From positions 1 to 28,334 of IMG/VR virus record IMGVR_UViG_3300031673_006486: DNA of 28,334 nt, one strand, 5' to 3'. The stretch comes from a virus. The position numbers were made by a program, and so were the translations under genes. This document shows positions 534 through 4,983 of the stretch, piece by piece; positions within the stretch are counted from its first letter, which is position 1, and every line of letters begins with the position of its first letter. The notes beneath the pieces are model-generated. The model did no database searches. It was not told the DNA's origin and saw nothing but the letters and a program-made list of their open reading frames with translations.

Positions 534-1421
534 ATGTCAATTGTTTGGGAACTCGTAACAGAAGAACACAACAAAGGCATCGAGACACCAGTCGAAAACC
601 CCTTTGTTCGTGCATTAAACCTATTCGAAGACGACGAAAACGAAAGAGCAGAAAGAAGGAGACAGCGCCTTGCCGACTGTGGTCAATCCGCGTGTAGGCT
701 TGACCCGCATACGGGTAAGCACTATTGGTTTACCCAAAAGTGCGGACTATTTAGGGAATGCCCTAAATGCCTTGCCGAGCGCGCAGATAAGATAAAAGAG
801 CAAATGTACGATTTTATCAAAGATGGCAATGCGGTCTCTGGACTTCGCCTTACAGAGAAAGAAGCGAAGAGTCTTGCTAGAAAACTAGATAAAGACCTTT
901 ATGAAAAGTATCCGCAGTTGGATGGCTCGGAGCTTGCATTTGTAAAAACTGATATGCTTCCAAAAGCACTTGCTCATCTAGCTCGACCTGTCGAGAGGGA
1001 AGATGTGTATCAAATTAACTGGATTGATATTGCACTAACTCCAGAGGGAAGAAACAAGAGCGGATGTATGACAACCAGTAAAGAGACATCAGAGGACGAG
1101 GAGACCTTCGCTTTTGTAAACTCTCCGTCCATTGTGAGCGACGCTCCTGCCAGCGAGCAAGAGAGAGCACTTGAGATTGCTAGACATAAGACTAATCACC
1201 TTGACCCGCACACCGCGGATGAAGTTGAGGACGCACTCCAAGAGCGCATGTGGGAAGCGTACCGCATACTAAAAGCAAGCGGTTACAACCCCCGTATCTA
1301 TCACGGGATGGTGAAAGTGATAACGAGTCGAATTTCATGGCTTAATTTTAATAGTGTTAAACGAGAAAAACAACATAAAGAGCCATTAGAAAATCAGGCT
1401 AGAATGTGGTGGAGCGAGTAA
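534..1421 (+). CDS. Zinc-motif protein of unknown function, possible replication/DNA-binding factor
   Basis: The 295-residue product has a cysteine cluster in its first third: C49, C54, C70, C76 and C79, with the last three in the order CGLFRECPKC. Such a C-x5-C-x2-C arrangement after an aromatic stretch recalls zinc-binding N-termini of plasmid replication proteins, but no HUH, primase or polymerase motif follows, so I do not name it. Residues 30-47 are highly charged, and the C-terminal third is predicted helical with many basic residues. A strong GGAGG and its own promoter precede the ATG. It is the first gene of the rightward unit that includes an IS110-like protein, a repeat array and a helicase, so a role in replication or its control is plausible. 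The end of the gene is folded into a long inverted repeat. Confidence 0.8.
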   Translation: MSIVWELVTEEHNKGIETPVENPFVRALNLFEDDENERAERRRQRLADCGQSACRLDPHTGKHYWFTQKCGLFRECPKCLAERADKIKEQMYDFIKDGNAVSGLRLTEKEAKSLARKLDKDLYEKYPQLDGSELAFVKTDMLPKALAHLARPVEREDVYQINWIDIALTPEGRNKSGCMTTSKETSEDEETFAFVNSPSIVSDAPASEQERALEIARHKTNHLDPHTADEVEDALQERMWEAYRILKASGYNPRIYHGMVKVITSRISWLNFNSVKREKQHKEPLENQARMWWSE

Positions 1422-1486: not shown

Positions 1487-2197
1487 ATGTCTGAAACACG
1501 ATTAGAAGTAGTAGCAGAACCTGTTGCCACGCAGTTGAAACAAATAGTTAATATCCGTGCCTTTACTCAAGACCAGCGGATTGCTTTTAGCAACAGGATT
1601 GACGCGGTTGAACGCGGTGACTCCTCTCTCTCTCTATCTCATGTGAAAAATCTTGAGGTATGGAGAGACCGTTTTGCAGTTATGGAGGCGTACGCAAACG
1701 CTGACATTAAAAGAATTACAGAAGATATGGAGATAGTGTCACGCATGACAAAAGTCGTCGGAATCGGCCCGATACTATCCGCTCAGCTTGTGGCGCAGAT
1801 TGACATAACAAAAGCAGAAACGGTGTCTGCTTTGTGGCGCTACTGTGGATATGGCGTTACAGAGGAAGGCAATGCCGAGCGCAGAACCAAAGGCGAGCGC
1901 ATTCATTATAATCCGATTGTTAAAACATTATGCTGGAACATTGCAGTATCATTTTTGCGTAAAAGTAGCCCATATCGTGTTTTGTATGATAGTGCAAAAG
2001 AAAAGTACACCAGAGAGAAACCGGACTGGACACCGATGCACGTTCATAACGCCTCCCTGCGTATTATGATGAAGCGTTTCCTGTCTCATTTCTGGGTAGT
2101 CTACAGAGAGATTGAGAATCTTCCCGTAAGAGTCCCTTATGTCCACGAGAAACTCGGACATACTACAATGGATAGCCCTGCGGATTATGGTTGGTAA
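1487..2197 (+). CDS. IS110-family Tnp_20-like protein lacking the RuvC domain
   Basis: This 236-residue protein matches the C-terminal half of IS110/IS116/IS902 transposases: a helical lead-in (about 52-87), a helix-hairpin-helix core VVGIGPILSAQLVAQI (90-105), then a segment ending in helical stretches with the family pattern (NPIVKTLCWNIA, SPYRVLYDSAKEKY, NASLRIMMKRFLSHFWVVYRE). Full IS110 transposases also carry an N-terminal DEDD RuvC-like domain of about 150 residues; only about 50 unrelated residues precede the helical lead-in here. The Ser-Gly site that carries the nucleophilic serine in active members reads TEEGNAERR, without serine. I infer a DNA- or nucleic-acid-binding protein, not an active transposase. 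AAAAGGAG precedes the ATG. It lies directly upstream of a non-coding repeat array that may be its target. Confidence 0.75.
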   Translation: MSETRLEVVAEPVATQLKQIVNIRAFTQDQRIAFSNRIDAVERGDSSLSLSHVKNLEVWRDRFAVMEAYANADIKRITEDMEIVSRMTKVVGIGPILSAQLVAQIDITKAETVSALWRYCGYGVTEEGNAERRTKGERIHYNPIVKTLCWNIAVSFLRKSSPYRVLYDSAKEKYTREKPDWTPMHVHNASLRIMMKRFLSHFWVVYREIENLPVRVPYVHEKLGHTTMDSPADYGW

Positions 2198-2217
2198 AGC
2201 CAGGTAAGATTTGGAGA

Positions 2218-2620
2218 AACCCATAGCCAAGAGCGAGTCATATGAAATAAGTAATCCACCAAAACAAACGAGTCAATGAGGTAAGTAACCCACGAAGGAA
2301 GAGCGAGTCGCAAAAAGAAGAAATCCTAAACCGATGAGCGAGTCAATAACTCTAGATACCCAGAAGAACAAGCGAGCCGTTAATTTTAGAAACCCAAAAA
2401 TTTTATGCGAGTCCAAAAGAAGAGTAATCCATTTAGTAAAGCGAGTCACCATAGCAAGACAACCAAATTAAGAAACGAGCCTTACTCTAAAGAGAACCAC
2501 GAATGTATAGCGAGCCAATAAACTAATGAACCCAAAATTCACTGCGAGTCCACTGTAAACAAGAAAACCATAACGCAAAGCGAGCCAATTACTATATAAA
2601 CACATGATACAAAGCGAAAC
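2218..2620 (+). repeat. Array of two alternating short motifs, 34.7-bp period
   Basis: This non-coding stretch holds eleven perfect CGAG(T/C)C motifs starting at 2234, 2269, 2304, 2339, 2373, 2408, 2442, 2476, 2511, 2545 and 2581, plus a decayed CGAAAC at 2615. Spacing is 34-36 bases throughout. Halfway between them sits a second motif, AA(C/T)CC(A), with its last C at 2222, 2257, 2291, 2326, 2361 (ATACCCA), 2395, 2430, 2464, 2498, 2533, 2569 and, decayed, 2603. Neighbouring motif ends are 17 or 18 bases apart almost everywhere (one gap is 19). The bases between are not conserved but are A-rich and T-poor on the plus strand. The period is not a multiple of three, which argues against coding. 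It may be an iteron-type origin, a partition-like site, or an RNA scaffold; see findings. Confidence 0.9.
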
Positions 2621-2638
2621 TAATCAAATGAGGCATAC

Positions 2639-4240
2639 ATGGAAGGAATCCCATCACCAAAAGATTTAGGTATTCCACATAACGAGTGGAGACCAAATCA
2701 ATATAAGATGTATGAGAAGTGCAAAAACCTTCACGATAGTGGGGGTGGATTTATCTTTGGCGAGCTTGGCACTGGAAGCGGTAAGTCTGCTGTCGCCGCG
2801 GCTCTTGCTAACGAGGATAGGGTGACAGTTCTCACTCACACTCTAGGTTTGCTAGACCAGTACGCCGAGAAATACGGTTTCCAGACTATCAAAGGCAGAC
2901 AAGAGTATCCATGCGCGGACGATAAAAAGAATAGAGAGTGGCAAGCCCGTTATGGATATTTGCCAACAGCGCTTGACTGCCATCATGACAACATGATGCA
3001 CTGTCCGTTTGTTGGAAGCTGTGCCTATATTATCCAGAAGCATATTGCGCTCAGCTCAAAGAAAATGGTTTGTACATACAGGTACGCGTCTGTGAGCCAG
3101 AAGGTTCAGGCGCGCTCAGGCATTCTTGTGCTTGATGAGGCGCACGACAGCGCAGAGGAAATCATTTCGGATAACGAGTTTGCTATAAGGAAAGCAATTC
3201 TAAGCGCGTACAACCTCCCGCGATTTCCCCTAATAGCTTTCGGGCCAAACGGAAAGGGAGACACGCTCAATGAGGCGCAGGTTGGATTGGTCAAGACGTG
3301 GCTCAAAGAGTGCATAGAGCTTATGTCTTATTCTGAGGACGAGATGAAATCAGAGAATGGCGCTAAAGCGATGCGGGTAAGGAACAGATTTTCTAAATTG
3401 CTTTCATCGCTAGACAACGGAGACCCGTATTTTGCTTTAAAAGACGATAACACCGAAGAGCCTGTTCTAAAGGCGCTTAGTGCAAAAGAGACTACAGAAA
3501 GAATATTTCAGTCTAAGACTACTACCCTTTTGATGTCGGCAACAATAGGCGACCCGTTGCCACTGGCTACAGAGTTAGGGATTGATAATTATGAGTTTGA
3601 GAGCTTTCCACATCCAATCCCATTCGAGTATCGCTACGTTGATATGGTTAAAGCTCCGAAAATGACATATCACAACCTGTCTAAAGACCCGAACCTATAC
3701 GCCTATCAAGGCGCTGTTGTAGCGCGATGGATAAAACAGTTTGACCCAAGATGGAGAGGGGTTGTTCTTACAACTTCATACTACAAGTTACAGCGTTTGG
3801 CAGACTATCTGAGATACCATTTTCCAGAAAGGCGCATTATATCTCAAGGAAGCGATACGCATTTATCCACAATGATAAAAGATTTCGTCACGGACGTGCG
3901 CGAAGGCGACATTGCGGTTGCTACGATGCAAGGATGGGGGTCTGGGATAGACCTCTACGGCGACCTAGCACGCTTCATTGTAATTGCAGGCGTCCCACAT
4001 CAAAACCCCCGTGACCTCTATGCAAAAGCCCGTAGAGGGCTTTTTGGAGGCGAGCGGTATCAAATGTGGTGTACCTACAACGCTGTGATGCAAGCGTGCG
4101 GCAGGGTTTCTCGCGGCGAGACCAATACAGATGGAAGCTGGATGTCTAATTACGCCGCTCTTGCGGACGCATCCGCATATACAGCCAAGGCATTGAAATT
4201 TTACTCTCCGTGGTTTAAAGAGGCAATGAGAAGAACATGA
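2639..4240 (+). CDS. DinG/XPD-type superfamily 2 DNA helicase with Fe-S cysteines
   Basis: The 533-residue protein is an ATP-dependent helicase. A Q-motif-like segment lies at 18-27, Walker A GELGTGSGKS at 41-50, Walker B DEAH at 166-169, motif III MSAT at 299-302, and motif VI QACGRVSRG at 485-493. Between Walker A and DEAH are four cysteines, C92, C114, C122 and C128, the placement of the 4Fe-4S domain in the XPD/DinG/FancJ family. Such enzymes unwind DNA 5'-3', and DinG also resolves R-loops. It is shorter than E. coli DinG (about 700 residues) and may lack part of the arch region. GAGG lies six bases before the ATG. The stop codon overlaps the methyltransferase start (ATGA). Its place directly after the repeat array suggests work at a replication origin; that is inference. 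Confidence 0.9.
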   Translation: MEGIPSPKDLGIPHNEWRPNQYKMYEKCKNLHDSGGGFIFGELGTGSGKSAVAAALANEDRVTVLTHTLGLLDQYAEKYGFQTIKGRQEYPCADDKKNREWQARYGYLPTALDCHHDNMMHCPFVGSCAYIIQKHIALSSKKMVCTYRYASVSQKVQARSGILVLDEAHDSAEEIISDNEFAIRKAILSAYNLPRFPLIAFGPNGKGDTLNEAQVGLVKTWLKECIELMSYSEDEMKSENGAKAMRVRNRFSKLLSSLDNGDPYFALKDDNTEEPVLKALSAKETTERIFQSKTTTLLMSATIGDPLPLATELGIDNYEFESFPHPIPFEYRYVDMVKAPKMTYHNLSKDPNLYAYQGAVVARWIKQFDPRWRGVVLTTSYYKLQRLADYLRYHFPERRIISQGSDTHLSTMIKDFVTDVREGDIAVATMQGWGSGIDLYGDLARFIVIAGVPHQNPRDLYAKARRGLFGGERYQMWCTYNAVMQACGRVSRGETNTDGSWMSNYAALADASAYTAKALKFYSPWFKEAMRRT

Positions 4241-4983
4241 GATGTCCGCAGTGTAACGGTAAGGGAAAGCACAAGGATTGGTGCGACATGGGACTTGGCG
4301 CAGTTCTCAAGGCAAATAATGTTCCCTCAACATCTGGGATAAAGGAGGCACAAACGATGATACCTTCTATTGGGTTTGACCAGCACGAGATACTACGCTG
4401 GATAAACAAGCTCCATCTTGATGAAAAATGGATAGCATGTGACCCATGCTACGGCAATGGAAATTTCTATACGCCTGATGATATTCCACGCCCGATGTAT
4501 GTGTATGACGTGCAACCGAAAAAGACGGGTGAAGGAGAGAGGCCAATTCTTCGCTCGGATTGCAGAGATTTACCGCTGGCGGATGTCTCTGTTGACTCCC
4601 TTATCTTTGACCCGCCGTTTTTGCAGACTACTGGCGAAGGTTCTATCATAAAAGACCGATTTGGTAGCTATCCAACGATGCCTGCGCTGTGGGAGTTTTA
4701 CAGTGAGTCTATTGGTGAGTTCAACAGGGTTCTTGTTCAGAGCGGAGTTCTTGTCGTAAAGATGCAGAATACGGTTATGTCAGGCAAGCAGTGGTGGAGC
4801 GTGAGCGAAATAGAGCGCTACGCAGATGAGAACAGCTTTGCAAAAATAGACGAGTTCGTTCTTCTTGCAAAACACAGGATGCCACAGCATAACCTGAAAA
4901 CACAGCGACACGCGAGAAAGTACCACTCGTATTTTCTCGTTTTTAGAAAAATAATCAGAAAGAGAGGTAGGTTCGATGTCTAG
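4237..4983 (+). CDS. Amino DNA methyltransferase, DPPF type
   Basis: The 248-residue protein has the two signature motifs of a Rossmann-fold amino (N6-adenine or N4-cytosine) DNA methyltransferase: DPCYGNG at 69-75, a motif I variant for SAM binding, and SLIFDPPF with the catalytic DPPF at 125-128. The short N-terminus carries C3-x2-C6 and C16 (MRCPQCNGKG, DWC), a possible small zinc knuckle. It could protect phage DNA from host restriction or mark it for replication or packaging; target sequence cannot be read from the protein. No restriction endonuclease gene is visible beside it, so it looks like an orphan methyltransferase. It overlaps the helicase by four bases and the next gene by eight, so the three are translated as one operon. 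Confidence 0.85.
   Translation: MRCPQCNGKGKHKDWCDMGLGAVLKANNVPSTSGIKEAQTMIPSIGFDQHEILRWINKLHLDEKWIACDPCYGNGNFYTPDDIPRPMYVYDVQPKKTGEGERPILRSDCRDLPLADVSVDSLIFDPPFLQTTGEGSIIKDRFGSYPTMPALWEFYSESIGEFNRVLVQSGVLVVKMQNTVMSGKQWWSVSEIERYADENSFAKIDEFVLLAKHRMPQHNLKTQRHARKYHSYFLVFRKIIRKRGRFDV

What the first reader, a model, noticed from the sequence alone, without database searches (positions are those of the whole stretch)
2197..2638. Array of about 23 alternating short motifs at a 17-18 base half-period, without CRISPR features
Eleven exact CGAG(T/C)C motifs (2234 to 2581) at 34-36 base spacing alternate with twelve AA(C/T)CC(A)-type motifs placed halfway; a twelfth, decayed CGAAAC is at 2615. The spaces are unique, A-rich and T-poor. 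A 34.7-base period is neither whole DNA turns (about 3.3) nor codons. I know no named element with this layout. Options: (a) an iteron-like replication origin bound by the IS110-like or zinc-motif protein; (b) a centromere-like partition site; (c) a transcribed RNA scaffold with many protein sites, like CsrB in principle; (d) an R-loop origin served by the DinG-like helicase next door.
Basis: partly seen in the sequence, partly recalled or inferred. Interest (0 to 1): 0.87.

Follow-up and report, generated by a model that had tools for sequence, protein, structure and literature searches.

The report
Phage TIGR guide-RNA array with TasA
The strange alternating motifs are a TIGR array, a string of twelve two-part guide RNAs used by the neighbouring TasA protein to find matching DNA; this RNA-guided system was first described in 2025, so the find is a good new example of a known thing.

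Summary
The 236-aa IS110-like protein just upstream (1487-2197) is TasA, the nuclease-free Tas protein. It passes the NCBIfam TIGR-Tas model (185 bits, cutoff 100), matches solved TasH and TasR sequences (E 3e-27, 6e-25), and its confident model fits the TasH-tigRNA-dsDNA structure (TM 0.85). One database match is Salicola phage CGphi29, an experimentally proven TIGR-Tas locus with near-identical repeats. At least 65 of 80 related viral contigs carry such an array near tas, on the tas strand (454 edge motifs against 3). The RNA is less structured than shuffles, and near-identical tas genes can carry mostly different spacers, as guides should. Likely mechanism: a transcript cut into ~34-36-nt guides that lead TasA to bind DNA without cutting it. 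Mild peculiarities: irregular 34-36-nt units where most relatives are fixed at 36, and read-through into a DinG-like helicase gene. No self-target found. New member of a known kind.

The parts
1487..2197 (+). tasA: 236-aa solo Nop-domain (IS110 C-terminal-like) protein, no nuclease domain
   Evidence: NCBIfam NF052498 TIGR_Tas_endo 185 bits, cutoff 100; phmmer to TasH chains E=2.9e-27, query 17-236 on TasH 71-307, so the N-terminal HNH part is absent; AF2 model pLDDT 94.3; Foldseek TM 0.85 to 9w04 TasH-tigRNA-dsDNA
2198..2616 (+). TIGR dual-repeat array, 12 units (24 spacers)
   Evidence: edge AGCGAGYCA / loop AGNAAYCCA, unit table; chance test
2198..2202 (+). 5'-truncated edge repeat (AGCCA), directly after the tasA stop codon
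   Evidence: similar arrangement in Mvi-JY20, L018, L044, L050, L053, L066 (TAGCC)
2203..2231 (+). unit 1: spacer A (12 nt, over-long), loop 2215-2223, spacer B 2224-2231
2232..2266 (+). unit 2: edge AGCGAGTCA, A TATGAAATA, loop AGTAATCCA, B CCAAAACA
2267..2301 (+). unit 3: edge AACGAGTCA, A ATGAGGTA, loop AGTAACCCA, B CGAAGGAAG
2302..2336 (+). unit 4: edge AGCGAGTCG, A CAAAAAGA, loop AGAAATCCT, B AAACCGATG
2337..2370 (+). unit 5: edge AGCGAGTCA, A ATAACTCT, loop AGATACCCA, B GAAGAACA
2371..2405 (+). unit 6: edge AGCGAGCCG, A TTAATTTT, loop AGAAACCCA, B AAAATTTTA
2406..2439 (+). unit 7: edge TGCGAGTCC, A AAAAGAAG, loop AGTAATCCA, B TTTAGTAA
2440..2473 (+). unit 8: edge AGCGAGTCA, A CCATAGCA, loop AGACAACCA, B AATTAAGA
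2474..2508 (+). unit 9: edge AACGAGCCT, A TACTCTAA, loop AGAGAACCA, B CGAATGTAT
2509..2542 (+). unit 10: edge AGCGAGCCA, A ATAAACTA, loop ATGAACCCA, B AAATTCAC
2543..2578 (+). unit 11: edge TGCGAGTCC, A ACTGTAAACA, loop AGAAAACCA, B TAACGCAA
2579..2612 (+). unit 12: edge AGCGAGCCA, A ATTACTAT, loop ATAAACACA (degenerate), B TGATACAA
2613..2616 (+).
   Evidence: sequence; the same GCGAAAC ends the array of the closest relative L120
2639..4240 (+). DinG/XPD-like SF2 helicase gene; the array runs into its GAGG ribosome-binding site with no terminator. Neighbour, probably on the same transcript; functional link not shown
   Evidence: Pfam Helicase_C_2, PADLOC typeIV_DinG E=7e-45, no terminator at 2613-2638

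Best explanation
The array is a dual-repeat TIGR array, and the 236-aa protein is its TasA. Inferred mechanism: the array is transcribed in the tasA direction and stays largely unfolded. With TasA's help it is cut inside each edge repeat (the truncated end repeats suggest around GCG^AG) into guide RNAs (tigRNAs) of about 34-36 nt, each with two short spacers. A TasA dimer holds one tigRNA by its box C (YCA/CCA) and box D (AG) motifs. Spacer A pairs with one strand of a DNA target and spacer B with the other strand of the adjoining stretch, so the target reads A followed by the reverse complement of B. TasA has no nuclease domain, so it most likely binds, opens and bends the target without cutting it, blocking transcription or replication of a competing element or of a host gene. 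Shown here: family membership, anatomy, strand, lack of RNA structure, spacer turnover among relatives. Inferred from proven relatives: processing and target geometry. Not shown: the natural targets and the benefit to the phage.
For: NCBIfam TIGR_Tas_endo above cutoff. phmmer to solved TasH (E=2.9e-27) and TasR (E=6e-25). AF2 model pLDDT 94; the best Foldseek matches are all TasH/TasR complexes, with IS110 recombinases next at TM about 0.6. Salicola phage CGphi29, the SpTasH locus studied in PMC12045711, is a tblastn hit and carries AAGCGAGCCA/AAGACAACCA repeats against AGCGAGYCA/AGNAAYCCA here. Dual-repeat arrays were segmented near the tas gene in at least 65 of 80 viral relatives. Motif strand bias 454:3. 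The RNA folds worse than 99 of 100 shuffles, z=+2.3. L026 and L029 Tas are 96% identical but share only a few spacers, and spacers are shared across loci as whole A+B units (21 against 5). The truncated first and last edges match the published array anatomy.
Against: Units are 34-36 nt and irregular, whereas 52 of 68 analysed arrays are rigidly 36. No terminator follows the array, although the paper calls one typical; only 2 of 67 arrays here had a strict one (that detector missed the visible one in Mvi-JY20). No RNA-seq for this phage. No target found in its own genome or in 0.8 Mb of related phage DNA.
Confidence: 0.93

Rival explanations
1. Same TIGR-TasA array, but working with the downstream DinG-like helicase: TasA opens the target and the helicase is loaded there to clear transcription or replication machinery, as CasDinG does in type IV-A CRISPR.
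For: TasA has no nuclease; the array lies directly between tasA and the helicase gene with no terminator. The helicase matches the PADLOC typeIV_DinG model E=7.4e-45 over almost its whole length. CasDinG is essential in nuclease-free type IV-A interference (abstracts of PMC10450177 and PMC11519345).
Against: Only 4 of 50 tas-bearing records have any match to that model; the two strong ones lie about 20-30 kb from tas. The same model also rings in all 14 control genomes, so it means DinG in general. Specific type IV Csf4 models match only weakly.
Confidence: 0.08
2. DNA-level repeat: iteron-like replication origin or partition site bound by a phage protein.
For: Periodic direct repeats in an intergenic gap beside a helicase gene.
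Against: The repeats occur next to tas genes in many different phages, on the tas strand. Cumulative GC skew peaks near 7 kb, where gene direction switches, not at the array. The protein is a member of an RNA-binding guide family.
Confidence: 0.02
3. CsrB-like RNA sponge or scaffold that titrates a protein through many sites, without guide function.
For: Many protein sites on one unstructured transcript.
Against: A sponge needs no unique paired spacers; spacers are inherited as A+B units, and homologues are proven guides (PMC12045711).
Confidence: 0.02
4. Self-regulation: guides aimed at the phage's own genes.
For: Encoded by the phage itself, next to replication-type genes.
Against: Best A+rc(B) matches in the window have 3-4 mismatches of 16, no better than mispaired controls (3.33 against 3.13 +/- 0.13); no enrichment in CGphi29, Mvi-JY20 or relatives' flanks. 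The window may be a fragment.
Confidence: 0.04

Closest known systems
TIGR-TasH of Salicola phage CGphi29 (SpTIGR; PMC12045711)
   Same: Tas core about 35% identical; repeats AAGCGAGCCA / AAGACAACCA; array just downstream of tas; truncated end repeats
   Different: CGphi29 Tas has an N-terminal HNH nuclease, almost fixed 36-nt units and a terminator; the window Tas starts at the equivalent of TasH residue 71, units are 34-36 nt, and there is no terminator
TIGR-TasA systems (e.g. FpTIGR-TasA, PMC12045711)
   Same: Solo Nop-domain protein plus dual-repeat array
   Different: The paper reports no clear partner proteins apart from an occasional ParB-like gene, while here a DinG-like helicase gene follows the array
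Ornatilinea apprima tas locus (L120, genome contig, Chloroflexota)
   Same: Closest relative found (47% identity by tblastn); edge AGCGAGCCA, loop AGAAACCCA; array opens at the stop codon and ends in GCGAAAC
   Different: About 5 units, followed by a GC-rich terminator; no DinG gene beside it
IS110/IS621 bridge-RNA transposases
   Same: Shared Nop/Tnp_20 fold, TM about 0.6
   Different: No DEDD catalytic domain here and an array instead of a single bridge RNA
CRISPR arrays
   Same: Repeats with unique spacers
   Different: Two alternating 9-nt repeats and 8-9-nt spacers instead of one 25-36-nt repeat; no cas genes found among the neighbouring genes tested

Membership tests
TIGR-Tas (dual-repeat) | Tas protein with a Nop domain of the Tas family | tested here: met
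   NF052498 185 bits, cutoff 100; TasH/TasR best in sequence and fold
TIGR-Tas (dual-repeat) | two distinct alternating 8-12-nt repeats separated by about 9-nt unique spacers | tested here: met
   9-nt edge and loop, spacers mostly 8-9 nt
[quoted passage not shown]
   AGCCA at 2198-2202 and AGCG at 2613-2616
TIGR-Tas (dual-repeat) | rho-independent terminator after the array (typical, not required) | tested here: not met
   none between 2613 and 2639; strict terminators are rare in the phage loci examined, so this is not treated as defining
TIGR-Tas (dual-repeat) | 36-nt unit / tigRNA | tested here: inconclusive
   units 34-36 nt; RNA ends not measured
[quoted passage not shown]
   AG...YCA/CCA in both repeats; C/D motifs change together in edge and loop in other loci
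TIGR-Tas (dual-repeat) | array processed to small RNAs bound by Tas; RNA-guided DNA binding with two spacers | not testable with these tools
   needs RNA-seq and binding assays
TasA subtype | solo Nop domain, no HNH or RuvC | tested here: met
   236 aa aligned to TasH 71-307; no nuclease family hit
CRISPR-Cas | single 25-36-nt repeat with cas genes | tested here: not met
   dual 9-nt repeats; no cas family hits in the neighbouring genes apart from the general DinG match
Type IV-A CRISPR | CasDinG helicase acting with a nuclease-free effector | tested here: inconclusive
   DinG-like neighbour but not recurrent, and the model is not specific
IS110 transposon | DEDD domain joined to the Tnp_20 domain | tested here: not met
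   only the Tnp_20 region is present; transpos_IS110 25.6 bits against cutoff 140

The most novel reading that the evidence does not exclude
A TIGR-TasA system that uses a co-transcribed DinG-like helicase as its effector: a guide-RNA complex without nuclease plus a helicase, convergent with type IV-A CRISPR, with relaxed 34-36-nt guides.
Probability: 0.08. Interest if true: 0.75.

Novelty: new member of a known kind. Interest (0 to 1): 0.36.

Why it matters
TIGR-Tas was described in 2025, and what nuclease-free TasA does and what the arrays target are open questions. This locus adds a phage TasA whose closest relative found lies in a Chloroflexota genome, with unusually irregular units and a helicase gene on probably the same transcript. 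The survey around it adds two usable facts: guides are inherited as whole A+B units while most spacers are replaced between near-identical tas genes, and the half edge repeat that opens the array often overlaps or abuts the tas stop codon. Such pairs of related arrays are where natural targets could be sought.

Tried and rejected
Single-protein scans of viral contigs with TasA and with the helicase: no relatives. Pattern scan for three CGAGYC in a row failed twice on the server. Rfam: nothing. Spacer-pair targets in 0.8 Mb of held phage DNA: no enrichment over shuffled pairs or wrong order. Own genome: none. Shared-unit target TGYTCWGGACAGACATGT in IMG/VR: 3 hits, none encoding the expected peptide, judged chance. 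Idea that guide variants track synonymous codon changes of a coding target: looked good by eye, P=0.17 in a permutation test, dropped. DinG as a regular TasA partner: not recurrent. Spacer pairs of 14-18 nt in all are too short to search the large collections, since chance hits would swamp real ones.

Full report
OBSERVATION. Eleven exact CGAGYC motifs form a chain with 34-36-base spacing on the + strand. Markov sequences of the region reach at most 2 (5000 trials), Markov versions of the whole window reach 1 (200 trials), and the - strand reaches 1. Dissection by box-C ends gives a 5' half-edge AGCCA at 2198-2202 directly after the stop codon of the upstream gene, then 12 units of edge (AGCGAGYCA), spacer A, loop (AGNAAYCCA), spacer B, then a 3' half-edge AGCG at 2613-2616. 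Spacers are mostly 8-9 nt.

WHAT IT IS. The 236-aa gene 1487-2197 is annotated by Pfam only as Transposase_20. A tblastn of the phage collection found Microcystis phage Mvi-JY20 and Salicola phage CGphi29 among the best hits. Reading their DNA shows the same alternating array directly downstream of the homologous gene, each ending in a hairpin with a T run. CGphi29 is the SpTasH locus of Faure et al., Science 2025 (PMC12045711). That paper describes TIGR arrays: alternating edge and loop repeats of 8-12 nt, ~9-nt spacers A and B, truncated edge repeats at both ends, a Tas protein with a Nop domain, processing to 36-nt tigRNAs, and targeting of both DNA strands. The window meets the sequence-level features. 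NCBIfam now has a model for the protein, and the window gene scores 185 bits with a cutoff of 100. The best solved relatives are TasH (E=2.9e-27) and TasR (E=6e-25). An AlphaFold2 model (pLDDT 94.3) matches TasH-tigRNA-dsDNA at TM 0.85, TasR at 0.75 and IS110 recombinases at about 0.6. The protein aligns to TasH from residue 71 onward, so the HNH domain is absent and the subtype is TasA.

RELATIVES. An alignment query found 96 relatives in IMG/VR, of which 80 were kept; some of the 80 are near-duplicate contigs. A chain detector and unit stacking found a dual-repeat array near tas in most of them, and 65 of the 80 were segmented into half-units. L039, L042 and L067 gave no chain. Edge motifs lie on the tas strand 454 to 3. 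Consensus repeats vary between loci, but edge and loop often change together at their ends, for example CCG/CCG in L072 and CTA/CTA in L088. In 52 of 68 arrays analysed (window and two isolates included) at least 80% of the units are exactly 36 nt; the window is irregular at 34-36. L017 (the window's sister in the tree, support 96/88) and L018 (37% identical) are irregular too (read by eye), and L120 has half-units of 17-19. The closest relative found in any collection, in Ornatilinea apprima (Anaerolineae, Chloroflexota), is 47% identical. It has nearly the same repeats, the same start at the stop codon and the same GCGAAAC end, followed by a GC-rich hairpin and T run.

WHY GUIDES. Three independent signs. 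First, the RNA is less structured than 99 of 100 shuffles (z +2.3), as expected for guides and not for a structured scaffold. Second, L026 and L029 have Tas proteins 96% identical but arrays of 12 and 22 units that share only a few spacers. Third, when spacers are shared between loci they are shared as A+B pairs belonging to one tigRNA (21 cases) far more than as B+A pairs (5 cases, at least two from adjacent shared units).

MECHANISM. By homology the transcript is cut inside edge repeats. The truncated end repeats (..AGCCA at the start, AGCG.. at the end) suggest a cut around GCG^AG, giving RNAs of ~34-36 nt. From the 8-nt 3' overhangs reported for TasR, I deduce that a target reads A followed by rc(B). 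TasA lacks a nuclease, so silencing by binding is the likely effect; this is inference, also proposed in PMC12045711. I looked for targets. The window, two complete phages (CGphi29, Mvi-JY20) and related flanks, 0.8 Mb in all, gave no excess over mispaired controls. Contigs of five related phages gave no match to the clade's guide pairs with fewer than 2 mismatches of 18. A tempting pattern of synonymous differences between homologous guides was not significant (P=0.17).

NEIGHBOURHOOD. The array runs into the ribosome-binding site of a helicase gene (2639-4240) with no terminator. Read-through into the next gene looks common among the phage loci, so this is not unusual. The helicase matches a PADLOC type IV-A DinG model, which invites a type IV-A CRISPR-like scheme. 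However, only 4 of 50 tas-bearing records have any match, the two strong ones about 20-30 kb from tas, and the model also rings in all 14 ordinary control genomes. I rate this coupling at 0.08.

VERDICT. A clear TIGR-TasA locus in a phage contig: new member of a known, recently described kind, with small peculiarities (relaxed unit length, no terminator, helicase neighbour). Its proposed identities do not hold, except that the IS110-like protein and an RNA are indeed involved.

Noticed in passing
window 534-1421: 295-aa protein with an N-terminal CxxC-type motif and a C-terminal stretch that by eye resembles sigma-70 region 2; no Pfam, PHROG, NCBIfam or PADLOC match and no phage tblastn hit.
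   Followed up: partly
window 2639-4240: DinG/XPD-like helicase with a possible iron-sulphur cysteine cluster (C..CHHDNMMHCPFVGSC), best PADLOC match typeIV_DinG; followed by a DNA methyltransferase gene (4237-4983).
   Followed up: partly
L009, L018, L044, L050, L053, L066, L120 and others: The 5' half-edge repeat that opens the TIGR array often overlaps or directly abuts the tas stop codon (TAGCCA, TAACCA, TGAGCCA); in some loci (L083, L087) a loop repeat (TGAAAYCTA) supplies the stop.
   Followed up: partly
L026, L029, L031, L032, L043: Phages with 62-96% identical Tas share some complete A+B guide units, with point differences, while most spacers differ: likely shared targets and fast spacer turnover.
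   Followed up: partly
L012 2654-2986 and L011 2701-2938: Mycobacterium phages (76 records) and Arthrobacter phage Talia1610 encode tas-like genes; the two examined have no dual-repeat array but a 240-330-bp noncoding gap upstream, which may hold the stem-loop type of TIGR array.
   Followed up: no
L038, L055, L062, L065: Array chains appear on both sides of, or overlapping the end of, the tas gene in some loci.
   Followed up: no
L121: Candidatus Nomurabacteria contig with tas flanked by two arrays that share nearly identical units and end in the same hairpin, suggesting array duplication.
   Followed up: no
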